A DNA stretch of 64,000 nucleotides. Source: a virus. Under the pieces are notes generated by a model. It worked only from the letters and a program-made list of their open reading frames with translations. It was not told the DNA's origin and did not search any database. Where the stretch lies: the IMG/VR virus record IMGVR_UViG_3300021963_000083, positions 20,656-84,655 of that record; one strand, given 5' to 3'. Shown in pieces: positions 39,236-54,174 of the stretch. The position numbers and the translations under genes are program-made. Numbering within the stretch: the first letter of the stretch is position 1; every line of letters begins with the position of its first letter.

Positions 39236-40600
39236 TTAAGCGTACTTAAGACCGATAACTGACTTAGCGTTTGGAATGATTTCCTTGAAGCCAAGACGCT
39301 GAGTTGTTGCAAGAACCTTGTGCTGATTTTCAACTAGGTACTGGCTCTCAACTGTTACGCCACGCTGACGTGGAACAACGAAGTTACGTGTGTTAACTGC
39401 TAGCGCGTGGTACTTACCAGTTGCTGCTGCTGGGAATTCGTCGCAAACCATTACGGATGAACCGAAGATCTGACCTACTTCACCAGTTAGCTTTGTAGCC
39501 TGCTGGTTAACTAGGTTGAAGTCCTGGAATTCAGCATCTTCTAGTAGTTCGAAGTAGCACTGCTGTGAAACGATGTATGCAACGTCATTTGGACGTAGAC
39601 CATACTTGCCCATGTTCTTACGTAGGCCTAGTAGAGCAGCTGCGGTTAGCGGTGTTGCTGTACCAGCGGCTGTTACTGTGCGGCTCTGTGTAGAAGCGTA
39701 CTTTAGAAGACCTGATGCAGCTGTTGCTGAAACTGAAGGATATGCACCATCAGCGTGTCCACCAAGAAGGATTAGGTTTTCAACACCACGTGCGTGCTGA
39801 CGGATCATGCCTTCGCGTAGTAGTGGAAGAATTGGGATAATTCCATCTTCTTCTGTTTCGTTACCTAGGTAGCTCTTAGCAATCATCTTGATTGTGCGTA
39901 GTTCGATTTCAGTTAGTGCTATACCATCTTCTGAACCTACTGCAACGCCACGTGAATCAAGAGTACCAGCTGGTGCTGTACCTGGAAGCGCAGCATTACC
40001 TGTGATAGTTGCATAGTTGGTGTCTGGCATGATCGGTAGAACCATGCTTGCAGTTGTCATCGCGATTTCACGGAACATAGGAGCTAGGATTAGTTCTAGC
40101 TGGATATCACGTTCGATATTGATTGAAACTTCGCGCTCGAAGTTATCGCTTGATACAGCAACGGATGACATTGTGTTGACCTTCTGAAGAAGATTCTTTG
40201 CAAACTCTGTGTTATATCCCTTTCCAGTGATACGACCTAGTAGGAATGCATCGTCCATTTCCTGGGCGAATTGCTTCTGCCATTCGTTGCTGTTGCCGCC
40301 ACGGTCAGCGAATACACGCTTGCTGTTAGCAATGTTCTGTAGTTCAGCTGACTTTTCAGCTAGTTCTGTACGTAGACCTTCGAGCTTTGTATTTAGGTCT
40401 GTGTTGTCATCCTTGAAGCGCTTTTCTAGTTCTGCGAATAGCTTTTCTTCTGAAGATGCGATAACTTGTGCTACGATCTTTTCGTTAGCAGCCTTTTCGT
40501 CAGCAGCCTTCTGTGCAGCAGCTGCATCAGCGGCAGCCTTTGCTGCCATTGCGTCTGCAATGCCTTTCTGAATCTGTGCGTTAATTGTTTCGTCGTCCAT
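39236..40600 (-). CDS. Major capsid protein translated from an internal start (predicted)
   Basis: ATG at 40600 (MDDETINAQIQ) is preceded on the minus strand by GAGGAAAATTAAA, the best ribosome site in this region, in frame with the fusion. The 454-residue product is a normal HK97-type capsid protein: an about 110-residue delta/scaffold helix region followed by the capsid fold. Codon adaptation rises sharply from here to the stop, which fits separate, abundant synthesis. Whether capsids use this product, protease cleavage of the fusion, or both is undecided. Confidence 0.6.
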   Translation of the reverse strand: MDDETINAQIQKGIADAMAAKAAADAAAAQKAADEKAANEKIVAQVIASSEEKLFAELEKRFKDDNTDLNTKLEGLRTELAEKSAELQNIANSKRVFADRGGNSNEWQKQFAQEMDDAFLLGRITGKGYNTEFAKNLLQKVNTMSSVAVSSDNFEREVSINIERDIQLELILAPMFREIAMTTASMVLPIMPDTNYATITGNAALPGTAPAGTLDSRGVAVGSEDGIALTEIELRTIKMIAKSYLGNETEEDGIIPILPLLREGMIRQHARGVENLILLGGHADGAYPSVSATAASGLLKYASTQSRTVTAAGTATPLTAAALLGLRKNMGKYGLRPNDVAYIVSQQCYFELLEDAEFQDFNLVNQQATKLTGEVGQIFGSSVMVCDEFPAAATGKYHALAVNTRNFVVPRQRGVTVESQYLVENQHKVLATTQRLGFKEIIPNAKSVIGLKYA

Positions 40601-41875
40601 TTTAATTTTCCTCGACGCCATTTCAGCGCCCTCTGATGAGCCTCCGGTTTCAGCGAGAGGCTGACCACCTAGAGCATTTTCGAATTGTTTTCTAAAAGTA
40701 AGATAGTCGCTTTGACTATCGAATGATTTAGCTACAGAGAATGTAGCGTCTTGATTACAAGGTATAGAAACTACTGATACCTCAAGTAATTCTGCATCTT
40801 TAACGATTAAGCCATCAACTGACTTATCGTATTCCGCATCTTTAATTAAAAAGCCTACAGAGAATGTCGAAAGAACTCCTTCTTTGACTAAGTTGTGAAT
40901 ATCTCCAGCACTCTTGCTGATGATTCCCTTGATCTTTAGTCCTGTATTATCTGTAAGTATTTCTACAACCTTGCCTATTGGTTTATCATAATTATGATTG
41001 AATAGTAAGATTGGATTGGTTTGAAAGTTTTTTAGGCCTCCCTTAGTCCATGCAGTAGATAAGATTCTATCAGCTGAACGGTCAATAGCGTTTGTGCTAG
41101 CATAACCTGCTATAATAAGCTCACCGTCACTATCTTCGTGCATGTCCTTGATGGAGGAATCAAGCTTAAATATTTTATTCACACTATTCTCCTCTGGAGC
41201 AGGCACATTTTCGATACCTTTTCTCTTAACTTTAGTAAGCGTAGAAAAACGATGACCTACAAGAGTATCAGTTTCTACTTCATCCTTATATATCCGAATG
41301 AGTGCCGCGGGGTCTTCTTTAGTTGCATCTATGGAGAAGCTGCTATCAGGAATACCTAAAGTGCCTTCTCTCATAATGTGCTCTATACGGCCCATTGCCT
41401 TTCCGCCAGAAGAGTTCCACTCTACAAAATCACCAAGTTTTAAATCTTTTGGACCTGCTGTTTCATGTACGTCTTCTAGACCGTCCTCGTCTTCATCTTC
41501 AGAGTATTCTTTAGTATAGTCTAGGGATTTACCTTCTAGCCTATCTAGCGTCTCACTCTTGGCTCTAGCCCATGTCTGGCCGGGGTCTCCACCCCAAAGT
41601 GCCCAAGCAACTCTACCGTTAGAAGGAAAACCAGGCTCTCCAGGACTAAATCCTTCGCCTTGTTTATCTACTTCGTGTCTGCTGAAAAAGCTATGCATCC
41701 TACGTACAGTACTTGGTGATAGTTCTTGCTTATTTACAAGTTGCCTTGCACGAGCTAGACCTACCGGAGTACCTCCGTCGAATCCATCCTTTCTCCAGTC
41801 GAGAGCTTTTTGTGCCTCTTTTGCCATGCCATCGGTAGGAGTTAAATCAATATCTTCTCCACCTACTCTCGCCAT
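39236..41875 (-). CDS. Fused Tudor-like domain, prohead protease, scaffold and HK97-type major capsid protein
   Basis: 879 residues in one frame. Residues 1-100 (RKDGFDGGTPVGLARARQ ... GRVAWALWGGD) are a small domain often found in phage head genes. Residues about 145-215 resemble an HVA1/Tudor-like SH3 fold. Residues about 240-395 are a U35/S78 prohead protease (FNHNYDKPIG His, STFSVGF Ser). Residues about 430-520 are an Ala/Lys/Glu-rich helical scaffold, and the rest is HK97 capsid (IELRTIKMIAKSYL..., QHKVLATTQRLGF). A Shine-Dalgarno GAGGAAA precedes an internal ATG at 40600, which would release a 454-residue capsid protein. Confidence 0.85.
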   Translation of the reverse strand: MARVGGEDIDLTPTDGMAKEAQKALDWRKDGFDGGTPVGLARARQLVNKQELSPSTVRRMHSFFSRHEVDKQGEGFSPGEPGFPSNGRVAWALWGGDPGQTWARAKSETLDRLEGKSLDYTKEYSEDEDEDGLEDVHETAGPKDLKLGDFVEWNSSGGKAMGRIEHIMREGTLGIPDSSFSIDATKEDPAALIRIYKDEVETDTLVGHRFSTLTKVKRKGIENVPAPEENSVNKIFKLDSSIKDMHEDSDGELIIAGYASTNAIDRSADRILSTAWTKGGLKNFQTNPILLFNHNYDKPIGKVVEILTDNTGLKIKGIISKSAGDIHNLVKEGVLSTFSVGFLIKDAEYDKSVDGLIVKDAELLEVSVVSIPCNQDATFSVAKSFDSQSDYLTFRKQFENALGGQPLAETGGSSEGAEMASRKIKMDDETINAQIQKGIADAMAAKAAADAAAAQKAADEKAANEKIVAQVIASSEEKLFAELEKRFKDDNTDLNTKLEGLRTELAEKSAELQNIANSKRVFADRGGNSNEWQKQFAQEMDDAFLLGRITGKGYNTEFAKNLLQKVNTMSSVAVSSDNFEREVSINIERDIQLELILAPMFREIAMTTASMVLPIMPDTNYATITGNAALPGTAPAGTLDSRGVAVGSEDGIALTEIELRTIKMIAKSYLGNETEEDGIIPILPLLREGMIRQHARGVENLILLGGHADGAYPSVSATAASGLLKYASTQSRTVTAAGTATPLTAAALLGLRKNMGKYGLRPNDVAYIVSQQCYFELLEDAEFQDFNLVNQQATKLTGEVGQIFGSSVMVCDEFPAAATGKYHALAVNTRNFVVPRQRGVTVESQYLVENQHKVLATTQRLGFKEIIPNAKSVIGLKYA

Positions 41876-44227: not shown

Positions 44228-44541
44228 ACTACGCTTTCCTTGACTGTGACTTTCTTAGGTATACCCTTAAAAGTTAGCCCAGTCACAATGTACTCAAAGT
44301 TAACATAATATATTCCTGGGGCTAAAGAATCTGTATTGGATAGAGTAAATAGATAACCTTGAGTCACTTCTGGACTAGTATAATCTGCAACAGTAAACGT
44401 TTTGAGTACTGCGGCTGATTCTAATGGTACTTCGCCTCTTTGAGACGCTTTTAGTACTGCGGTTACTCCTGAAATAAGTGACTTAGTGCCAGTTACTACA
44501 GCGGGAATAACCAGGCTCTCACCTTGATATATAACGTACAT
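44224..44541 (-). CDS. Ig-like small structural protein downstream of TerL
   Basis: 105 residues predicted as a single beta-sandwich (YVIYQGESLVIPAVVTG ... GIYYVNFEYIVTGLTFKGIPKKVTVKE). Small proteins of this sort near terminase genes may be head decoration or fibre parts. Function not known. Confidence 0.55.
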   Translation of the reverse strand: MYVIYQGESLVIPAVVTGTKSLISGVTAVLKASQRGEVPLESAAVLKTFTVADYTSPEVTQGYLFTLSNTDSLAPGIYYVNFEYIVTGLTFKGIPKKVTVKESVV

Positions 44542-45830
44542 TAAAAACCTCCTGCGCTAGTTTTATAGCTATAAAGCGCGTACCTAATAGCGTCGGCCAT
44601 GTGGGACGCGTCATTATGTAGTGGCTTTTCTTTTTGTAAACTTTGATTTGGATCCCACTGATACTGATCAATTGAATACAGAGTATTCTTTAAATTGGGA
44701 TCCACAATAATTCTATCATTATCCGCTAGGGAGGCTACATAGCCTATACCATCTAAAACGGATTTTTTCGCATTTGTAGTGGGAATATCGTATTCCTGCG
44801 CGAAGTCATAACGCTGCTGCTGGTTAGCAGAATCAATATAAATATAATCTATATTCCACTTATCCATCAGAGCTTTAATATTTTTAGCGTGTCCAGAGGT
44901 AACTTCCTCGTTATCTAGGTATTCATCTAGTATATAGAACTTTTCATCTTCCCAATTGAACGCTATGACACACATTGCTGTTGGGTCACGGAAGCCAAGG
45001 TCGAGTCCTGCGAATACGTCGCATTTCTTAAGATTTAAATCCTTAGTATCACGAACACACTCTTCTTTGATCTGCCAGCATTTACCTTCGAAGGTAGAGA
45101 AGTCAGCTTCATATTCCTGTCTGAACTCTGCGTCTGACATTGATCTGCGTGCCTCTTGAACATCTTGTTCCGACATTCTAGGATTATCCTTATAAGTGGC
45201 CTTAACAGAGAACCACTCTGGGAATTCATTAGTAAATCCTCTATCAAATAGCTTTGAAAACCAGTTATTCTTACCACGAGGTGTAGAAATAAATAGTGCC
45301 TTTGAGTTTGGCTTATCTAGTGTAGGTCTTAGTGATACGTTGAACGCATCTAGTCCATCTGTAAGCGCGGCTTCGTCAAAGATAATTAGATCATAAGAAC
45401 GACCTACGCAGCTATCAACCTGATTAATAGAACCGATTCTAATTGTGGATCCGTTAGATAGCTCAATAACTCTATCTTTTGCGTTATCCTTAGCTACCTC
45501 TAGATTGAACCTCTTAATAAGCGATCTTTGTAAATCAAAAGAAATACTCGATAGATTATAGTTTGGCGCCATGATTAGTACATTGGAGCCAGGTACTAAT
45601 GAAACTACCTGGCCCACAACGTTTGCTATGTAGGTCTTGCCTTGACGACGTGATAGAGCAGCACACCCAAAACGATACTTAGGGTTATTTATACCATTTA
45701 TAAGAGCTATCTGAGAGGGTAAAGGATCTATCTCTAACTCTTTTAGATAGTTTCCAATGGGTACGCGCATAAACGCATTTGGATATTGAACTATAACGTC
45801 TTGTGGTATGTCTGCTCTACTTACTATCAT
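44541..45830 (-). CDS. Terminase large subunit
   Basis: 429 residues. ATPase domain: Walker A SRRQGKT near residue 61, Walker B LIIFDEAA near 148 and motif III LFISTPRG. Nuclease domain: GLDLGFRDPTA, YIDSANQQQRYDF and NDASHMADAIRYA provide the RNase H-like acidic residues. It cuts and pumps DNA into proheads. Separated from its small subunit gene by about 8.3 kb of lysis and curli-like genes, which is unusual. Confidence 0.95.
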   Translation of the reverse strand: MIVSRADIPQDVIVQYPNAFMRVPIGNYLKELEIDPLPSQIALINGINNPKYRFGCAALSRRQGKTYIANVVGQVVSLVPGSNVLIMAPNYNLSSISFDLQRSLIKRFNLEVAKDNAKDRVIELSNGSTIRIGSINQVDSCVGRSYDLIIFDEAALTDGLDAFNVSLRPTLDKPNSKALFISTPRGKNNWFSKLFDRGFTNEFPEWFSVKATYKDNPRMSEQDVQEARRSMSDAEFRQEYEADFSTFEGKCWQIKEECVRDTKDLNLKKCDVFAGLDLGFRDPTAMCVIAFNWEDEKFYILDEYLDNEEVTSGHAKNIKALMDKWNIDYIYIDSANQQQRYDFAQEYDIPTTNAKKSVLDGIGYVASLADNDRIIVDPNLKNTLYSIDQYQWDPNQSLQKEKPLHNDASHMADAIRYALYSYKTSAGGF

Positions 45831-45842
45831 ATTATTCCTAAA

Positions 45843-47903
45843 CTACTTTGAGGTTGCTCTATATATTCCATCCCAATTAGTGGGAGGATTACTCTTGTAT
45901 TCTTTAATTCTTTCCAGCATCATATCGTAATACTGGGTCATTTCATCTTTCCAGCATTTCTTTAGATCATTTGCGTACTTTTCCGCAACTTGCCAATTAC
46001 CCAGACGATATAGCTCTAAGAACTTGACATGCTGTTTCTCAGCTAATGGGTCATGGAACGGTAACACGGTAAATATTGTGGCGGGCTCGGTCTTACCTTT
46101 TACTGCGAGTAGATCGAGCTCAACGACTTGGTATGTTTCTCGCACATACTTAGCCGTTTTTGGTCCAATGACGATTTTGACACCGTAAGGCTTGGATTGA
46201 CCTTCGAGGCGAGCAGCAAGATTAACGCCATCGCCAAGACAGGTATAATCAAAACGCTGATCAGAGCCCATATTGCCAACAACCACGGTATCAGTATTAA
46301 TACCGAGGCCCATACCAAAAGCTGGTATACCTTCTTTCGTAATTTCTGCATTAAATTCCTCCAGGGAGCTCATCATCTGGAAGGCAGTCTTCACAGCATC
46401 CAGTGCGTGGTCTTGATTATTAACAGGTGCATTCCAGAATGCCATCTGAGCATCTCCGATGTACTTATCTAGTGTGCCCTTGTTCTCAAGAATTGCTTTA
46501 GTCATAGCAGTCATGTAGCGGTTCATGATCTGCGTGAGCCCCTGCACATTCTTACCATAGTGTTCAGAAATTGTAGTGAATCCGCGAACGTCTGTGAACA
46601 TGATTGATAGTTCTTGTTCAGTGCCACCAAGTTGTAGTAGTTCTGGCTGACGTTGTAGCTGAGCAACTAAGTCTGGGCTTAGATAAGTACCAAACTGCTT
46701 CTTAATCTGTTGTTTCTGTAAATACTCACTGATAAACTTAACGGTATAGATGTGTAAGTAAATTACCAATGCTGCAAGAATGTTGAAGGAAATATCAAAC
46801 AATATCATACTATGGGTAAACAGATAGATTGGAGCGTAAACATACCCAACTAGCAATATACCAATCCAGACTATTGAATACCTTACTCTTGACAGTATTA
46901 TAATCGACAACGAAAGTACCACGAATGCCACAAGATCAACAAGACCTACCCAATTCGGAATTGATACTGAATCTCCCTTTATTAGAGTTTCAAGCAGACT
47001 GGCTTGTAGCTGATGGGGGTGCTGCGCGCCTGAAGGAGTTGCTACAGGATTATTCAATCCAGCTGCAGTCACTCCTAGAATCACGATTTTACCTTTCAAA
47101 TCAGGTAAAGGATCAGCACCAATTTCTACTGACTGGAATCGGTAATTAGGATTAATGAATGTTCTTCCATATTCATCTGTTTTAATTGTTTCAAAAGAAG
47201 GAATTCGTAATGCTTCAACACCCGTCTGATTTACCTTTGCCTGATACGAAGGATCTCCGGCAGCAACACGCAGCATCTCTAGAGCAAATGCGGGGTAGTA
47301 TTCCCCGGATGATTGCGCTAGAAGAGGAACTCGCCTTACGACCCCGTCAGTCTCAGGTAGAGTTGATGTTACTCCCACACCGGCAGCGGCTTCTTGAAGA
47401 AGTGGGATATTACTTAGAACGCATGGATATTGAGGAAGAAATTCAGTTGCTTCTCCATCGCCGACTATTGCTACTCCAGTACGGCGGGTTGTTAAAGCAC
47501 TCTTTGAACCAGAGCAATCCGTGGTTACGGTTTGACTTAGGACTGTTGGAGTGCCTGTGAGACTTTCTGAAAAAGCTTTGTCTCCGCCGAAGCGATCGGC
47601 TTCAGGATAAAGTATTGTGCTGCCAACGATACCAGCGCCAGCGCTATAAATATCTGAATTAATTTTAGCATAAACACTCCTCGGGAAAGGCCATTGTCCA
47701 TACTTTTCAATTGCCTTTTCACCAATATTTGCGACTACAATCTGTTCTGATTGTACTGGACTATCTAGCATAAGATAGTCGTAGTACTTTAATTTCATGC
47801 TGTCGACTAAGAACGGATTCATCAACTTTACTGATAACAATAGCAGTACTGTAGCTACTGCTAGCCACGGTGATAATAGAATTTTACTCGCCTTGTTTAA
47901 CAT
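45843..47903 (-). CDS. CHASE2-domain membrane adenylate cyclase
   Basis: 686 residues from ATG 47903, chosen because GGAGGA lies 10 nt upstream (47930 is a longer alternative). One N-terminal TM (WLAVATVLLLLSVKL), an extracytoplasmic CHASE2 sensor (about 40-300), three TM segments (about 320-400), then a class III cyclase domain: IMFTDVRGFTTISE (metal Asp), DKYIGDAQMAFW (Lys for adenine and second metal Asp) and FDYTCLGDGVNLAARL. The Lys plus Thr pair predicts ATP use, that is cAMP production. It overlaps the FecR-like gene by 20 nt. I know of few phage cyclases, so this is an unusual signalling gene. Confidence 0.88.
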   Translation of the reverse strand: MLNKASKILLSPWLAVATVLLLLSVKLMNPFLVDSMKLKYYDYLMLDSPVQSEQIVVANIGEKAIEKYGQWPFPRSVYAKINSDIYSAGAGIVGSTILYPEADRFGGDKAFSESLTGTPTVLSQTVTTDCSGSKSALTTRRTGVAIVGDGEATEFLPQYPCVLSNIPLLQEAAAGVGVTSTLPETDGVVRRVPLLAQSSGEYYPAFALEMLRVAAGDPSYQAKVNQTGVEALRIPSFETIKTDEYGRTFINPNYRFQSVEIGADPLPDLKGKIVILGVTAAGLNNPVATPSGAQHPHQLQASLLETLIKGDSVSIPNWVGLVDLVAFVVLSLSIIILSRVRYSIVWIGILLVGYVYAPIYLFTHSMILFDISFNILAALVIYLHIYTVKFISEYLQKQQIKKQFGTYLSPDLVAQLQRQPELLQLGGTEQELSIMFTDVRGFTTISEHYGKNVQGLTQIMNRYMTAMTKAILENKGTLDKYIGDAQMAFWNAPVNNQDHALDAVKTAFQMMSSLEEFNAEITKEGIPAFGMGLGINTDTVVVGNMGSDQRFDYTCLGDGVNLAARLEGQSKPYGVKIVIGPKTAKYVRETYQVVELDLLAVKGKTEPATIFTVLPFHDPLAEKQHVKFLELYRLGNWQVAEKYANDLKKCWKDEMTQYYDMMLERIKEYKSNPPTNWDGIYRATSK

Positions 47904-48975
47904 TGATGATGGTTCCTCCAGCCGGGTCATTTATTTCAATTAGGAATGACTTTCCATTACTATCTATAAAGAGATTTTTATTCTCATCTTTCTTGAATCT
48001 TACGTCAATGGTAGTTCCTAATGATCTTACGAGACGAATAGAATCACCAGATAAAATAGTGGCAATCTGAGTTACAGTATCTAAACCGAATGTAGTGCCA
48101 CATAACTTAGTCTCTTCTCTAGTGATACAGTTATCAATCCCTAAACTATTGTCAAGAAAGTCTTCTTTGAGAAAGTCAGCATCTATTGTATTAATATCTA
48201 GATCTGAACTTGCAAGCGTGTCTTCTGCAAGATCATCTTTTGCTAAGAAGTCTATATCTAGTTCACTTAGGTCAAGAATGTTCTCTCTTCTGTCACTACC
48301 ATCTTGATCATACTGCATTTCTTGTGCAGGAGACACGATTAGCATATTGTCAATCATATCTAGCGTTAGGTTAAGAATAACAGGTTGTGATGGTCTGCTG
48401 TCCATCGTAGATACCATAGTAGCTTGGAACGCTTTAGTAAGAATAACTGATCCGGCAGCATTAGACACTGTAATTTCCCCTACCGAACCATCAGGTTCCG
48501 GAAGTAGAATGACCAAGCTTTTACCGAAGTCATCTACTGTTGTAGCGAAATCCGTACCGCGTACCGCGATGGTAGCGGTTGGAGTTCTAAGACTAATATT
48601 ACTCTTGCTTATTCTGCCGCTCTGTCCTGTTGCGAATCTTGCTGTACCACTTGCGAACTTAAGAGCCATTCTTGAAGTAGAGGGTTTGCCACTATATACA
48701 AAATCGTCAATCACAAGCTTAGAATGCTCAGTGACCTTAACAATAGAGTTATCTATAAATGTAATTTCAACTCTACCATTACCAGTTTGCACCTTATCTA
48801 ATTTGGCAATAGGTAGCTGAGGTCGTGTAGCAACCTTAGTGGTTTTCTTCACGACCTCACTTATACCTCGGTTTTGTGTAACTTTACCTATATTAGCATG
48901 GGCCACCGGCGTTACACTGATTAATAGTAATAGTGCTGCCGTTGCTTGTGCTATTGATCTTAAGTGTGTCAACAT
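47884..48975 (-). CDS. FecR-domain exported protein
   Basis: 363 residues. A signal peptide (about 1-27, TAALLLLISVTPVAHA) is followed by a FecR domain (VEITFIDNSIVKVTEHSKLVIDDFVY, RMALKFASGTARF, ISLRTPTATIAVRGTDF). The C-terminal half is highly acidic with DL/DI repeats (LDLSELDIDFLAKDD) and two Cys. In bacteria, FecR-like proteins are frequently encoded beside CHASE2 cyclases, as here. Its first 83 nt overlap the curlin-like gene in another frame, and its end overlaps the cyclase gene. Likely periplasmic partner of the cyclase sensor. Confidence 0.82.
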   Translation of the reverse strand: MLTHLRSIAQATAALLLLISVTPVAHANIGKVTQNRGISEVVKKTTKVATRPQLPIAKLDKVQTGNGRVEITFIDNSIVKVTEHSKLVIDDFVYSGKPSTSRMALKFASGTARFATGQSGRISKSNISLRTPTATIAVRGTDFATTVDDFGKSLVILLPEPDGSVGEITVSNAAGSVILTKAFQATMVSTMDSRPSQPVILNLTLDMIDNMLIVSPAQEMQYDQDGSDRRENILDLSELDIDFLAKDDLAEDTLASSDLDINTIDADFLKEDFLDNSLGIDNCITREETKLCGTTFGLDTVTQIATILSGDSIRLVRSLGTTIDVRFKKDENKNLFIDSNGKSFLIEINDPAGGTIINVKQGE

Positions 48976-49591
48976 TAGTTGTACTCTGTTGGTTTATTGC
49001 TACTGTATTAGTGTTGCCTGTAAGAAGCATTTCAATGTTCTTCCCAGCAGTGCCGTTCTGTACGGTAGTAATAGTATTACCATCGCCTGCTATTGTCTTG
49101 GTGTTCACAACATCATCTGCGTTTATAGTAGATGTAAGTGTATTGGTGTCGCCAGTGACTGTGATAGTCTGAGTTGCATTCGTAGCAGAAGCCGCTGTAC
49201 CTTGGTTAAATGTGAGATTATTTGAATCCCCAGTAACTTCAAGGGTCTTGGTTGAACCAGCTACACTAGCGGCATCACCTTGATCATATATTAATTCGTT
49301 ACTATCTCCTGTAACAGTAACATTCATATCAACATTATCCGCCTGAACAATAGAGCCTTGTATAGAGTTGTTATTGCCTTCTTGAGTTGTTGTTATTGTT
49401 TGACTATTTCCCTGAAGAACTACACGATTTTGTTCTGTTCCAATAGTATTGCCCTGCCCCTTTTGAGTAACAGTAATTACACTACTATCACCGACCTGGT
49501 CAATAAAGATTGAGTTAGTAGTTGATTGTGCCATCACTGCTGTACTAGCTAGTGATGACATTGCTACAAGTATTAATGAATTCCTTCCCAT
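48893..49591 (-). CDS. Curlin-like (CsgA/CsgB-type) amyloid subunit
   Basis: 232 residues. Signal peptide to about residue 22 (SSLASTAVMA), then about nine 20-25-residue beta repeats rich in Asn, Gln, Thr, Gly: DQVGDSSVITVTQKGQGN, TTTQEGNNNSI, VTGDSNELIYDQ, VTGDSNNLTFNQ, VTGDTNTLTST. This is the S-x5-Q-x-G-x2-N style of curlin, with some repeats changed to TVTGDSN. It ends in QCNAGGPC, two Cys not normal for curlins. Adjacent csgG and csgF make an exported amyloid fibre the best reading. Confidence 0.78.
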   Translation of the reverse strand: MGRNSLILVAMSSLASTAVMAQSTTNSIFIDQVGDSSVITVTQKGQGNTIGTEQNRVVLQGNSQTITTTQEGNNNSIQGSIVQADNVDMNVTVTGDSNELIYDQGDAASVAGSTKTLEVTGDSNNLTFNQGTAASATNATQTITVTGDTNTLTSTINADDVVNTKTIAGDGNTITTVQNGTAGKNIEMLLTGNTNTVAINQQSTTNVDTLKINSTSNGSTITINQCNAGGPC

Positions 49592-50382
49592 TACTCCCTT
49601 CCAACATAGTTAAAGTATCCTTTCTCTATTCCTTGTTTTATTAATTGTAAAACTGCTTCTTCAATGGCCATCTTTACGGCCATAGTATTTGCTTCATTTT
49701 CAGTCATGCCTACTTCGGCCTCGACTAACTTTGTGCCTACATCTACAAACTTAAATAGTGACAAGTCCCTTCCGACGGACAATACCGTTTTAGAAACCTG
49801 TACATTAAGAATTACTTCTCCCGTGTTAGTGTTAACGGCACGTAACGCTACTACCACTTGATCCTTTCTATACATGGTTGTGCCACCAATGCCTAAGTAC
49901 CTAGCACCAGCACCTCCGGTTTGTATATTGGTGTCATATCCTATGATGCCTCCCTGAATGATAAGGCCTGCGAATAACATTGGTTCGAGTTTATTTACAC
50001 CCTCACCTAAATACTCTTCTCGAGTTTGGCGAACAATTTGACGCTCCTTTGCAAGATCATCAACTCTATTACGCTCCACTACCCTAAACCACGTTCCCCC
50101 ACCAGCATCTTTTAATGCTGCAATAAGGAGTGAAGTTCCTCCTTGAGTTACTGCGGTTGAAAGATCTGCTCCGGCTGCCGAAGCTTTACGCTGACCAGTT
50201 AGGTCTGGAAAATCATATACTGCAACAACAGCTTGTCTTTCTGGGGGAGGTAGACTTCGCAAGTCTTTAGACTGCGTATTTACTACGGCTGCCTTTTCCC
50301 TGATGTCAAGAATTCCGGTCCCGGTGGACACACAGCCGCCTAATAACAGGGGCGCTAGCAAGACTACGTACTTCATTACCAT
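49591..50382 (-). CDS. csgG: CsgG-like curli secretion pore lipoprotein
   Basis: 263 residues. Lipobox LLLGGC (Cys17). Core segments match CsgG closely: VYDFPDLTGQ, LSTAVTQGGTSLLIAALKDA, WFRVVERNRVDDLAKERQIVRQ, IIGYDTNIQTGGAGARYLGIG, VVVALRAVNTNTGEVI, VSKTVLS, and VEAEVGMTENE. CsgG forms a nonameric outer-membrane pore for curlin export. The constriction loop differs from E. coli: by hand alignment the Tyr/Asn/Phe eyelet is replaced by small residues. Coupled to csgF (overlap) and to the curlin gene (adjacent). Confidence 0.95.
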   Translation of the reverse strand: MVMKYVVLLAPLLLGGCVSTGTGILDIREKAAVVNTQSKDLRSLPPPERQAVVAVYDFPDLTGQRKASAAGADLSTAVTQGGTSLLIAALKDAGGGTWFRVVERNRVDDLAKERQIVRQTREEYLGEGVNKLEPMLFAGLIIQGGIIGYDTNIQTGGAGARYLGIGGTTMYRKDQVVVALRAVNTNTGEVILNVQVSKTVLSVGRDLSLFKFVDVGTKLVEAEVGMTENEANTMAVKMAIEEAVLQLIKQGIEKGYFNYVGRE

Positions 50383-50819
50383 TTGAATCCGCTCGTTGGA
50401 ATTATAATTTCTGTTTGATTACCTTGAGCATCAACGATAACCAATTTTATCTCAGTGTCAGTCTTTTCATACTTAATAACATTACCTTCGAGGGTAAATT
50501 CTCCGGATTCTCCACCCATTTCACCAAACAGGTTATTAGTTAACTGTTGAGCTAACTGAGAATATATACGAGATTGTAAGTTGTTTAGAAAGCGATTGAG
50601 AATAGAATTCTTTTCTTCAAGAGCCTGTGCCTTTAGGTCAGCTTCTATCTTATCTTGGATAGCTTTCTTACGTAGAGTTTCTTGGTTTTCAATGGTCAAC
50701 CATTGCGCTCCGGCATTGTTACCCGAGAAAGATGGATTCTTGAATTGAAATACTATATCACTTGCATGTGCAGGAGTGCTTACTAAGAGTAGTGACAGTA
50801 TGATTATTCTTTTCGGCAT
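50376..50819 (-). CDS. csgF: CsgF-like curli assembly factor
   Basis: 147 residues. Signal peptide (LLLVSTPAHA) then SDIVFQFKNPSFSGNNAG, equal in pattern to the CsgF N-terminal peptide that lines the CsgG pore (FQFxNPxFGG). A helical middle (LNRFLNNLQSRIYSQLAQQL) and a beta C-terminus follow. In E. coli CsgF moors curlin fibres to the surface. Overlaps csgG by 7 nt. Confidence 0.92.
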   Translation of the reverse strand: MPKRIIILSLLLVSTPAHASDIVFQFKNPSFSGNNAGAQWLTIENQETLRKKAIQDKIEADLKAQALEEKNSILNRFLNNLQSRIYSQLAQQLTNNLFGEMGGESGEFTLEGNVIKYEKTDTEIKLVIVDAQGNQTEIIIPTSGFKW

Positions 50820-50829
50820 TTGTTCTCCC

Positions 50830-51132
50830 TTAGTTACTATCTTGTTTTTTAGTGATTTTGTTGATCTCTTTCTCTGCCTCTAGTCTTTCGTGTTCGATTG
50901 ATTTACCGCGCAAATAGAGTACAGTATCTACTTTTTGCTTTAAACGAATTAAATCGTTGTCAAGCATACGAATACGATCAATTAATCCAATTAATGTAGA
51001 GTTTGCTTGGCTCAACACTGGATCGACTTCCTCAGTTGCCCACTGCCAAACATAAAATACAAAGTATCCCATACCGGCGGCGGCAATGACTGGGAAACCA
51101 TACTCACTGATTAGTGCACCAATATCTCCCAT
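50830..51132 (-). CDS. Membrane protein with coiled coil, holin-like, paralogue B
   Basis: 100 residues. One TM near the N-terminus (GFPVIAAAGMGYFVFYVWQW) then a heptad-like helix (LIGLIDRIRMLDNDLIRLKQKVDTVL) and a charged Lys/Glu tail. Same plan as the next gene upstream (GFPIAAALAAGYFVF), so they are duplicates. Resembles single-TM BhlA/holin-type phage proteins. Directly upstream of csgF (10 nt gap). Confidence 0.6.
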   Translation of the reverse strand: MGDIGALISEYGFPVIAAAGMGYFVFYVWQWATEEVDPVLSQANSTLIGLIDRIRMLDNDLIRLKQKVDTVLYLRGKSIEHERLEAEKEINKITKKQDSN

Positions 51133-51413
51133 TAATCTTTCCTAGCGTCATCTTTGCCGTCTGCTCTAGAAATACGGTCAATGTCAGGTCTAAGACCTAG
51201 TGCATTGGATACAACTGTATCAATACGTATAACGTCGTGATTCATAGTTTTAACACGATTGTCTAGTCCCGTAATGATGCCCTTCATGCCACTGATACTG
51301 CTAGTGACACCAGCAAGGATGAACTTAAGTGTTAAAAACACGAAATACCCAGCAGCTAATGCCGCGGCAATAGGAAATCCTACGTCGGCTATAAGTTTAA
51401 AGAACTCTTCCAA
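51132..51413 (-). CDS. Membrane protein with coiled coil, holin-like, paralogue A
   Basis: 93 residues. N-terminal TM (GFPIAAALAAGYFVFLTLKFIL), then GITGLDNRVKTMNHDVIRIDTVV and a charged end. Paralogue of the 100-residue gene directly following (1-nt overlap). The two may form a heteromeric membrane complex; holin or spanin-like roles are possible but unproven. Confidence 0.6.
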   Translation of the reverse strand: MEEFFKLIADVGFPIAAALAAGYFVFLTLKFILAGVTSSISGMKGIITGLDNRVKTMNHDVIRIDTVVSNALGLRPDIDRISRADGKDDARKD

Positions 51414-51526: not shown

Positions 51527-52717
51527 TTAGAGTTGAGCAGCAAATTTACGGGTAAGAGATTTTCTTTCCTCTAGGCCAATTGTACCACCATTAATTTTTT
51601 TAGTCAAAGCCAGGATAACCGCATCACTAACTCCTAGATCACATACTGACCATAGTTTGTTGCGTTCGAAGAAGAATAGCGCTGACTCAAAGGCTAGTTC
51701 TCCTGCTACTAGATCTGGATTATCCATAATCTCTGGGCGACCGCAGAATTTTGCAAATGCGGTATAATTATCTTTTCCGGTTAACTGAAGAGCGCCGCGT
51801 CCACGATACTTGTATCCGTCTCCAGAAGACTCAGGACCATTACCCATTCTATTGGCATATACTTTATTAGCAATCTTTTCTGGATTACGAGCATAGCCTG
51901 CTGTAGAAGCAATAGTTGGGAAGTACTTGCGGAAAGTACTATTTAATCCTTTATCTGAATAGTTTAGGTTTTCTGAGAAAGCCTTGAAATGTCCACTTTC
52001 GTGACAGGTCTGAGCAAAGAAGTGAGCCGCTCTAGCAGGAGTCATTTTGAAATGGGCCATCGCCGCTTTCATAGTTCCTGGGCCAAAAGCTCCGTCTGCT
52101 GTTACACCACATTTTTCTTGTAGTGCTGCAATAGGATTCTTTGATTTAACGGCTGTGGCTACTGCAGCTACTGCTACTGTTGCCGCTACAGGCGCTGCTG
52201 ACATGACCTTATCTTTTAGTTCCAAAGGAACGGTGGAAGGGTCGAAGTCCGCGACTGGCGTATAAACGGTGCCGCCTTTTGCTGATTTAGTAGCAATTAG
52301 GCGCTGTCCTCTATTATTACCATTGCGCTTTAAAGAGGCATGAACCCATCCTGAGTTAGCTCCTTCTTTAGCGCTATAAAATTCTAAGATGACCTGGTCG
52401 AATACTAAATGATCCGCTACCCAGTCTGCTAGCTCTTTATTGGAGATACCAGGTACCTCGAAGTCAATAGCCTCACCATTACAGTGCTGCGAAGTCTTTG
52501 AACCCTTAACCTTAGCATTTACGGCTGGAGACCTGTAACAAGAATTTACTTTTACTGGCTTTCCGTAGTGTGAACGAACCTTCTCAAGAATATTTTCACA
52601 TACGTGTCTCATATTCTCAATATGTTCTTGAGTTGGCATATTGGAAAGTCCTAGCTTCTTAGCCGTAGGAGATGCAGTTAGCTCTTCTAGGGTAAAATGT
52701 TCCGTAATTTTGGTCAT
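51527..52717 (-). CDS. Two-domain endolysin (M15 peptidase plus GH19 glycosidase)
   Basis: 396 residues. The N-terminal peptidase M15 domain (about 1-150) has SQHCNGEAIDF (zinc His and Asp) and GWVHASL (third zinc His). A hydrophobic Ala/Val segment follows (APVAATVAVAAVATAV, about 175-195) and may anchor the enzyme. The C-terminal GH19 chitinase/lysozyme domain begins near KNPIAALQEKCGV, with the catalytic Glu in TCHESGHF and YRGRGALQLTGKDNY. It cuts both peptide cross-links and glycan strands of the wall. Modular fusions with two catalytic domains are uncommon in Gram-negative phages. Confidence 0.9.
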   Translation of the reverse strand: MTKITEHFTLEELTASPTAKKLGLSNMPTQEHIENMRHVCENILEKVRSHYGKPVKVNSCYRSPAVNAKVKGSKTSQHCNGEAIDFEVPGISNKELADWVADHLVFDQVILEFYSAKEGANSGWVHASLKRNGNNRGQRLIATKSAKGGTVYTPVADFDPSTVPLELKDKVMSAAPVAATVAVAAVATAVKSKNPIAALQEKCGVTADGAFGPGTMKAAMAHFKMTPARAAHFFAQTCHESGHFKAFSENLNYSDKGLNSTFRKYFPTIASTAGYARNPEKIANKVYANRMGNGPESSGDGYKYRGRGALQLTGKDNYTAFAKFCGRPEIMDNPDLVAGELAFESALFFFERNKLWSVCDLGVSDAVILALTKKINGGTIGLEERKSLTRKFAAQL

Positions 52718-52989
52718 TACTTCACCTTTTTAGCTAGTTTAGTTACCTGAGTCGCTGTCTTCTTTAGCTCGGTCTTAGCAATGGTTAAATCAGCTACATC
52801 TACTTTACCATCCTTATTAAGGTCTAGTGCGAGTTGTGCGTCTTTAACATCTAGCTTGCCGTCTTTATTGAAGTCTAGCATTTCTTTAGCTTGTGCTTCG
52901 AATGAGCCGTTTAATTTATTTCCTAGTGCGATGCCTACTAAAATACCGGCTAGAAACGCTAGGACTGCTGCTATAATAATTGTTGTCAT
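52717..52989 (-). CDS. Membrane-anchored protein with paired EF-hand (dockerin-like) calcium loops
   Basis: 90 residues. An N-terminal TM (IIIAAVLAFLAGILVGIALG) is followed by two 12-residue calcium loops, DFNKDGKLDVKD and DLNKDGKVDVAD, both with perfect D-x-N-x-D-G-x-[LV]-D-x-x-D spacing, then a Lys-rich helix. It overlaps the endolysin start by one base. A calcium-sensing or cohesin-binding partner in the lysis cassette is suggested but not shown. Confidence 0.75.
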   Translation of the reverse strand: MTTIIIAAVLAFLAGILVGIALGNKLNGSFEAQAKEMLDFNKDGKLDVKDAQLALDLNKDGKVDVADLTIAKTELKKTATQVTKLAKKVK

Positions 52990-53386: not shown

Positions 53387-53531
53387 CAGTTTCTTCCTCT
53401 ACGGGTGCTTCTACTACTGCCGGTACTTCTTCTACCACTGCAGGTGCTTCTTGGGCTAAAGGCACTTTATAGACTAGCTTGTCGCCTTCGTATCCCATTT
53501 TTTGATTACGCTTAATATATTCAATAACCAT
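53370..53531 (-). CDS. Small Val/Pro/Glu-rich protein
   Basis: 53 residues from ATG 53531: a basic N-terminus (IEYIKRNQKMGYEGDKLVYK) then an Ala/Pro/Val/Glu repeat (APAVVEEVPAVVEAPVEEE). It starts inside the end of the TM-GAF-like gene (11-nt overlap) and ends inside the holin candidate start (17-nt overlap), so coupled translation is likely. Function unknown. Confidence 0.55.
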   Translation of the reverse strand: MVIEYIKRNQKMGYEGDKLVYKVPLAQEAPAVVEEVPAVVEAPVEEETVVLPE

Positions 53532-54174
53532 TGTTTAGGTATCCTGTAACACTCTTTGCTAATACGGAAGTTCTACGAAGAGTAACCTCATCAGCTGTCG
53601 TGTTGCTTTCTGAAAACCCAACGACCATTATGCCGATAGGATAGTTCAGTAAATTTACTAGTGGACATACCACTGCTTTGTTTAACTTGTGCGCTTTGAA
53701 ATATCTACGAGTAGAAGTATCTACTGGTGAATACAGCACTATACACTCCGGTTTGTCTATACGTTGCCAAACCTGACGTAAGCTTCTATTCATAGCTGAG
53801 ATGGGTTCATCTATATCGGGCTCGTGCCCATCATCATCCGAGGGATCTACATAATAAGTTGTTGAGACATTAGTAAAAGGTATCCCTGTTAAATCATGTC
53901 GCCCATTATGAAATTGCTTAATAATAACATTATCAGCTTTCGTATATACCCTAAGGTCTTCTATGCTTTTATTTATAATGTCTGTACTATGCAATTGAGC
54001 TTTGAATCTTGCTGCTTGTTGGTCGGGTGTAACTACTAAGCTCTGTATCGTGTTATAGCTCTTCACGCCTACATAAGAGGCAAAGACTATAAATACAGCC
54101 ACCATAGTAGCTACTGGCTTCGCGGACAGGGAATCTATAAGTGCTTTGACAGCCTTACTTAGATCCTTTATCAT
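53521..54174 (-). CDS. Membrane-anchored GAF-like domain protein
   Basis: 217 residues. One TM (VATMVAVFIVFASYVGV, about 21-38) followed by a GAF-like fold (VYTKADNVIIKQFHNGRHDLTGIPF ... IGIMVVGFSES). Proteins of this plan are common in lysis and late regions of large phages, with unknown ligand. It overlaps the terminase small subunit gene by 20 nt. Confidence 0.6.
   Translation of the reverse strand: MIKDLSKAVKALIDSLSAKPVATMVAVFIVFASYVGVKSYNTIQSLVVTPDQQAARFKAQLHSTDIINKSIEDLRVYTKADNVIIKQFHNGRHDLTGIPFTNVSTTYYVDPSDDDGHEPDIDEPISAMNRSLRQVWQRIDKPECIVLYSPVDTSTRRYFKAHKLNKAVVCPLVNLLNYPIGIMVVGFSESNTTADEVTLRRTSVLAKSVTGYLNNGY

What the first reader, a model, noticed from the sequence alone, without database searches (positions are those of the whole stretch)
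45843..50819. Phage late operon carries a curli-like secretion cassette joined to FecR and a membrane adenylate cyclase
Seen: csgF, csgG, a curlin-repeat gene, a FecR-domain exported protein and a CHASE2-adenylate cyclase lie in one tightly overlapped run between lysis genes and terL. Known: CsgG/CsgF export and anchor curlin amyloid, and FecR-type proteins often adjoin CHASE2 cyclases in bacteria. I recall curli genes being reported in some marine phages, but not, to my knowledge, with this cyclase pair. Inference: late in infection the phage makes an extracellular amyloid and couples outer-membrane or periplasmic state to cAMP. Uses could be biofilm trapping of progeny, blocking re-adsorption, or altering host state before lysis. 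csgE, csgC and csgB are missing, so host parts may be needed.
Basis: partly seen in the sequence, partly recalled or inferred. Interest (0 to 1): 0.93.

Follow-up and report, generated by a model that had tools for sequence, protein, structure and literature searches.

The report
Phage curli cassette with membrane cyclase
A long-tailed (T5-like) virus of an unidentified aquatic bacterium carries a seven-gene set to export a curli-like sticky protein together with a surface protein and a membrane enzyme that makes cAMP; this gene set was already reported in other marine phages, but here it appears in a new phage type and its FecR protein looks like the fibre's anchor rather than an iron regulator.

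Summary
Observation confirmed: csgF, csgG, a curlin-family gene, a FecR-domain gene and a CHASE2-class III cyclase form one tight run between endolysin and terL. The central novelty claim fails: the same set, FecR and cyclase included, was published in 2022 for pelagi-podo- and myophages (PMC9599517), and curli genes of pelagimyophages before that. New here: (1) the carrier is a T5-like siphophage, and contigs of 258-361 kb also carry the set, beyond the two families reported; (2) the unit is really seven genes: two paralogous ~95-aa single-helix proteins (most likely the published "histidine kinases", but without a kinase domain) stay with it in 74 of 80 sampled loci through several internal inversions; (3) the FecR protein is exported, not an anti-sigma factor, has a predicted fold like an adhesin anchoring domain, and ends in a curlin-like strand in 44 of 45 homologs; (4) the closest bacterial CHASE2 cyclases often sit next to large FecR-domain surface proteins, whereas the six bacterial csgFG operons examined lack both. 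Best reading: an amyloid export set of the infected cell whose FecR protein anchors the fibre and reports its state to the cyclase. Fibre, anchor and cAMP are all untested experimentally.

The parts
51132..51413 (-). s93: 93-aa protein, one N-terminal membrane helix plus coiled-coil tail; most likely one of the genes that the literature calls 'HK'
   Evidence: 60% identical in Melnitz and 52% in HTVC008M, found in no other phage record; cassette genes in 74 of 80 IMG/VR loci; paralogue of s100
50830..51132 (-). s100: 100-aa paralogue of s93
   Evidence: phrog_18771 (unknown function) E=5.2e-29; faint YvrJ resemblance, best E 0.027
50376..50819 (-). CsgF, with signal peptide and the N-terminal FQFKNPSFSG segment that in E. 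coli enters the CsgG barrel
   Evidence: Pfam CsgF 3.6e-24; alignment to PDB CsgF; P29, F31, G33 invariant and F26 nearly so
49591..50382 (-). CsgG, outer-membrane secretion pore lipoprotein (lipobox LLLGGC)
   Evidence: Pfam 1e-50; E. coli CsgG 1.1e-48
48893..49591 (-). curlin-family fibre subunit, 232 aa with signal peptide
   Evidence: 20 of 24 homologs hit Curlin_rpt; invariant N26, Q32, G34, Q43, G45, N48; all-beta model, mean confidence 81.8, pTM 0.79
47884..48975 (-). exported FecR-domain protein; its signal peptide is encoded inside the 83-base overlap with the curlin gene
   Evidence: Pfam FecR 5e-11; no membrane helix beyond the signal peptide in 31 homologs; anchoring-domain-like fold
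47887..48129 (-). C-terminal beta segment of the FecR protein (residues 283-363) ending in a curlin-like strand ...GGTIINVKQ
   Evidence: last Gln invariant; end motif in 44 of 45 homologs, shuffles mean 2.5, maximum 8; model confidence about 80
45843..47930 (-). CHASE2 class III nucleotide cyclase, 4 membrane segments; start more likely Met10 (47903)
   Evidence: Pfam CHASE2 and Guanylate_cyc; catalytic motifs intact in 63-64 of 65 homologs; membrane segments
51527..52717 (-). endolysin (M15 peptidase plus GH19), upstream neighbour, not part of the set
44541..45830 (-). terminase large subunit, downstream neighbour; places the phage near T5-like siphophages
   Evidence: 48% identical to T5-like Vibrio phages

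Best explanation
A phage-borne type VIII (curli) export set in a T5-like siphophage. CsgG with CsgF forms an outer-membrane pore and exports a curlin-family subunit (inferred from homology). The FecR protein is exported; its FecR domain stays on the cell envelope like an adhesin anchoring domain, and its curlin-like C-terminal strand joins, caps or nucleates the fibre (inferred, the weakest step). The periplasmic CHASE2 domain reads the FecR or fibre state and the cytoplasmic class III cyclase makes cAMP (pairing shown by genomics, signalling inferred). No phage record tested encodes a cAMP-binding protein, so cAMP would act on a host regulator. The two small one-helix proteins are constant partners of unknown role. 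The likely benefit is a changed surface of the infected cell (aggregation, or exclusion of other phages) before lysis.
For: Domains and PDB matches; curlin family; CsgF pore-entering segment conserved; cyclase motifs intact; purifying selection; gene set kept together through inversions; FecR exported with no second membrane helix, fold match to anti-sigma FecR domains and to 5ix9 'cell surface anchoring domain', rmsd 1.1 A over 61 residues, a match also seen weakly by sequence (E=0.14); curlin-like FecR end in 44 of 45 homologs against 0 of 42 bacterial FecR proteins; bacterial FecR-CHASE2 adjacency.
Against: The tail resembles curlin only modestly: 30% of tails exceed the 95th percentile of controls, with no preference for the phage's own curlin. 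The curlin-repeat model scores above zero in only 18 of 45 FecR proteins, and at least two of those matches lie outside the tail. The FecR model has low overall confidence (pTM 0.49). The curlin model has no significant PDB match. csgE is absent. Melnitz-infected cells showed no clumping in culture (PMC9004378).
Confidence: 0.5

Rival explanations
1. Lysis timing: CsgG(F) acts as a gated outer-membrane pore that helps trigger lysis, as proposed for Melnitz; the cyclase and small membrane proteins tune it.
For: Here the set lies beside the endolysin; an endolysin like the window's is found in 30 of 160 viral loci; s93/s100 are small one-helix proteins with a faint YvrJ or holin resemblance.
Against: 33 of 56 loci of at least 20 kb show none of the lysis and other neighbour genes tested, though other endolysin families would be missed; in T4-like phages the set lies between ssb and baseplate genes. 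A conserved curlin and a curlin-like FecR tail have no role in a simple pore.
Confidence: 0.15
2. Uptake pore: CsgG without CsgE stays open and imports nutrients or iron complexes for the infected cell; FecR is an iron-linked regulator (ideas raised in PMC9599517 and PMC7029224).
For: csgE absent in 15 of 15 phage records.
Against: FecR has a signal peptide and no anti-sigma region or second membrane helix. The curlin gene is under strong purifying selection and curlin-like genes also adjoin the pore genes in the six bacterial loci examined, as expected for export.
Confidence: 0.12
3. The FecR-cyclase pair is a surface sensor borrowed as a unit; the FecR C-terminus is an ordinary beta tail that does not touch the fibre.
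For: FecR-CHASE2 pairs exist in bacteria without curli (PMC9239204); weak tail-curlin scores and no own-locus preference.
Against: Near-universal terminal strand motif with an invariant last Gln, absent from the bacterial FecR neighbours; FecR lies between two curlin genes in many loci.
Confidence: 0.2

Closest known systems
Pelagiphage T8SS module (PMC9599517, 2022)
   Same: Same gene order: short genes, CsgF, CsgG, CsgA/B, FecR, (CsgA/B), adenylate cyclase.
   Different: Reported for podo- and myophages of SAR11. Here a T5-like siphophage with no second curlin gene; the short genes have no kinase domain; FecR re-read as an exported, curlin-tailed protein.
Methylophilales phage Melnitz and Pelagibacter phage HTVC008M (PMC9004378, PMC7029224)
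   Same: Homologous cassette: cyclase about 40%, CsgG 45-50%, FecR 37-46% identical.
   Different: T4-like myophages, two curlin-region genes, different insertion site.
Escherichia coli curli system (CsgBAC/DEFG)
   Same: CsgG pore, CsgF with its N-terminal pore segment, curlin repeats.
   Different: No CsgE found; no annotated CsgB; FecR and cyclase added.
Bacterial FecR-CHASE2 cyclase pairs (Campylobacterota, PMC9239204; Sinorhizobium smc02177 and cyaD1, PMC5498481)
   Same: FecR-domain protein beside a CHASE2 cyclase; in 31 of 80 loci within 300 bases.
   Different: Bacterial FecR partners run to thousands of residues, lack the curlin-like end and have no csgFG within 10 kb.

Membership tests
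Type VIII secretion (curli) | CsgG-family outer-membrane pore | tested here: met
   Pfam 1e-50, PDB CsgG 1.1e-48
Type VIII secretion (curli) | CsgF with N-terminal CsgG-binding segment | tested here: met
   Pfam 3.6e-24, conserved segment
Type VIII secretion (curli) | Curlin-repeat substrate | tested here: met
   Family matches PF07012 in 20 of 24 members though the window protein itself does not
Type VIII secretion (curli) | CsgE (accessory, in E. coli) | tested here: not met
   Absent in G000 and 14 other records; absent in alphaproteobacterial modules too according to PMC9599517
Type VIII secretion (curli) | Amyloid fibre is formed | not testable with these tools
   needs expression and dye or EM assay
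Pelagiphage T8SS module | CsgF-CsgG-CsgA/B-FecR-AC in fixed order, preceded by one or two short genes | tested here: met
Pelagiphage T8SS module | Short genes are histidine kinases | tested here: not met
   93-100 aa, no kinase match in Pfam; no HATPase_c above cut-off in 15 phage records, none at all in HTVC008M or Melnitz. That these are the genes meant by the paper is inferred from position and size
FecI/FecR anti-sigma system | FecR with cytoplasmic anti-sigma region and single transmembrane helix | tested here: not met
   Signal-peptide-like N-terminus in 28 of 31, no later membrane segment in 31 of 31
Class III adenylate cyclase | Metal-binding Asp pair and transition-state Asn/Arg | tested here: met
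   motifs in 63-64 of 65
T5-like siphophage (Demerecviridae) | TerL similarity and gene order D12-D13-flap endonuclease, tail genes, capsid, portal, TerL | tested here: inconclusive
   TerL 48% identical; gene order corresponds by eye to Vibrio phage PG07; capsid fused to protease, unlike PG07; no phylogeny made

The most novel reading that the evidence does not exclude
The phage FecR protein is a curlin-tailed anchor/nucleator, functionally replacing CsgB, that ties an extracellular amyloid to a CHASE2 cyclase, so that fibre assembly on an infected cell directly sets its cAMP level.
Probability: 0.3. Interest if true: 0.8.

Novelty: new member of a known kind. Interest (0 to 1): 0.5.

Why it matters
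The set is widespread in aquatic phages (587 or more IMG/VR stretches) and spans at least three phage types, yet no function has been tested. Reading FecR as part of the fibre and naming two constant small partners turns a puzzling list of host-like genes into a defined seven-gene system with testable parts. If correct, phages rebuild the host surface and wire it to a second messenger, and bacterial FecR-CHASE2 pairs could be read the same way.

Tried and rejected
Phage-encoded cAMP effector: none of 34 records has a cNMP-binding domain. Riboswitch as in Melnitz: no Rfam match in the window. Histidine kinase: not supported. Donor operon with all five genes: the six strong bacterial CsgG loci hold csgF and csgG with curlin-like genes and neither FecR nor cyclase by these models, and the closest bacterial cyclases have no csg genes within 10 kb, so the joining may have happened in phages or in an unsampled bacterium. 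Co-variation of FecR tail with own curlin: none. Simple periodicity test of the window curlin: weak, only G reaches p about 0.04. Structure search of the curlin model: nothing significant.

Full report
What is there. The window is 64 kb of an 84,655-base IMG/VR virus record. On the - strand between endolysin and terL run s93, s100, csgF, csgG, a curlin-family gene, a FecR-domain gene and a CHASE2 cyclase, with overlaps of up to 83 bases. The FecR signal peptide is encoded within the overlap with the curlin gene. dN/dS against two relatives is 0.07-0.14 for the five named genes, so the genes are maintained.

Prior art. PMC7029224 reported csgF/csgG in pelagimyophages, PMC9004378 in Melnitz (with a lysis hypothesis and no clumping seen), and PMC9599517 reported the complete module including FecR and adenylate cyclase in podo- and myophages of SAR11. 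Tblastn against annotated phages finds long cyclase and FecR matches only in Melnitz and HTVC008M, plus short cyclase-domain matches in two Acinetobacter phage records.

Which phage. TerL is 48% identical to T5-like Vibrio phages, and the order recombination nucleases - flap endonuclease - tail - capsid - portal - TerL corresponds by eye to Vibrio phage PG07 of Demerecviridae. The T4 capsid family Gp23 is absent here but present in 19 of 34 carrier records, among them contigs of 258-361 kb. The set therefore occurs in T4-like, large-genome and T5-like phages, and in podophages according to PMC9599517. The host of the window phage is not known.

Seven genes, not five. s93 and s100 are paralogues. 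A search for them recovers cassette genes in 74 of 80 loci; the other six are mostly cut off by contig ends, though L196 and L231 have some free sequence. Across 160 viral loci the seven genes appear in several internal orders, with s93-s100 upstream, or convergent beside the cyclase, or between the cyclase and an inverted csgF-FecR block. The sample is limited to the best 80 hits per search, so these are not population frequencies. By position, size and number they are most likely what PMC9599517 calls one or two 'histidine kinases'; they are too short for one, and HTVC008M and Melnitz contain no HATPase_c match.

FecR. Homologs begin with a signal peptide (28 of 31) and have no later membrane helix, unlike FecR anti-sigma factors. 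The model has a beta FecR domain, a disordered linker and a C-terminal beta segment. Foldseek matches FecR-type anti-sigma domains (E=8.4e-4) and, at probability 1.00 and 1.1 A over 61 residues, 5ix9, described as a cell surface anchoring domain; the sequence profile finds the same chain as its best but non-significant hit over the FecR region (E=0.14). The C-terminus ends in a curlin-like strand: the terminal motif is in 44 of 45 homologs against a shuffle mean of 2.5 and maximum of 8 and in 0 of 42 bacterial FecR neighbours. In L204 it reads STTNSIFIKQ, and the window curlin reads STTNSIFIDQ. The resemblance is modest overall: 30% of tails beat the control 95th percentile, with no own-locus preference. 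The motif was chosen after seeing the alignment, so the shuffle test overstates its surprise.

Cyclase. CHASE2 lies between one N-terminal and three later hydrophobic segments, and the catalytic motifs are intact. The 80 best bacterial relatives, 32-37% identical and nearly all titled as Alphaproteobacteria, have a FecR-domain protein within 300 bases in 31 cases; the phage-built FecR model may miss others, so 31 is a lower bound. No csg gene was found near them. Conversely, the six strong CsgG loci found among 385 genomes lack FecR and cyclase. No carrier phage tested has a cNMP-binding protein.

Mechanism and confidence. Shown: the genes, their families, their intactness, their linkage and the export features of FecR. 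Inferred: pore assembly, amyloid formation, FecR as anchor or nucleator, cyclase signalling and benefit to the phage. Lysis control is less favoured because the position next to an endolysin is not general.

Noticed in passing
window 39236-41875: Prohead protease (S78) and major capsid protein are fused in one 879-aa gene with an Hva1_TUDOR-like segment; found only in this record and L004's record among 34.
   Followed up: partly
window 52717-52989: 90-aa protein with one membrane helix and two DxNxDGxxD motifs (calcium-binding, EF-hand or dockerin-like) beside the endolysin.
   Followed up: no
window 53521-54174: 217-aa membrane protein, possibly GAF-like by eye, in the same block; no clear family.
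   Followed up: no
L068, L166, L240, L174, L216, L051: Contigs of 258-361 kb with a divergent Gp23 capsid carry the cassette, so large-genome phages have it too.
   Followed up: partly
L084-L163: FecR-domain proteins next to alphaproteobacterial CHASE2 cyclases are often 1,000-3,000 residues long and look like surface adhesins.
   Followed up: partly
OR851715.1 (phages collection): A 1,499-base 'Salmonella phage' record encodes CsgG; probably host DNA filed as phage.
   Followed up: no
L168, L243, L165-L167: Some loci hold two cyclase matches near the cassette; in L168 they may be one gene broken by a frameshift.
   Followed up: no
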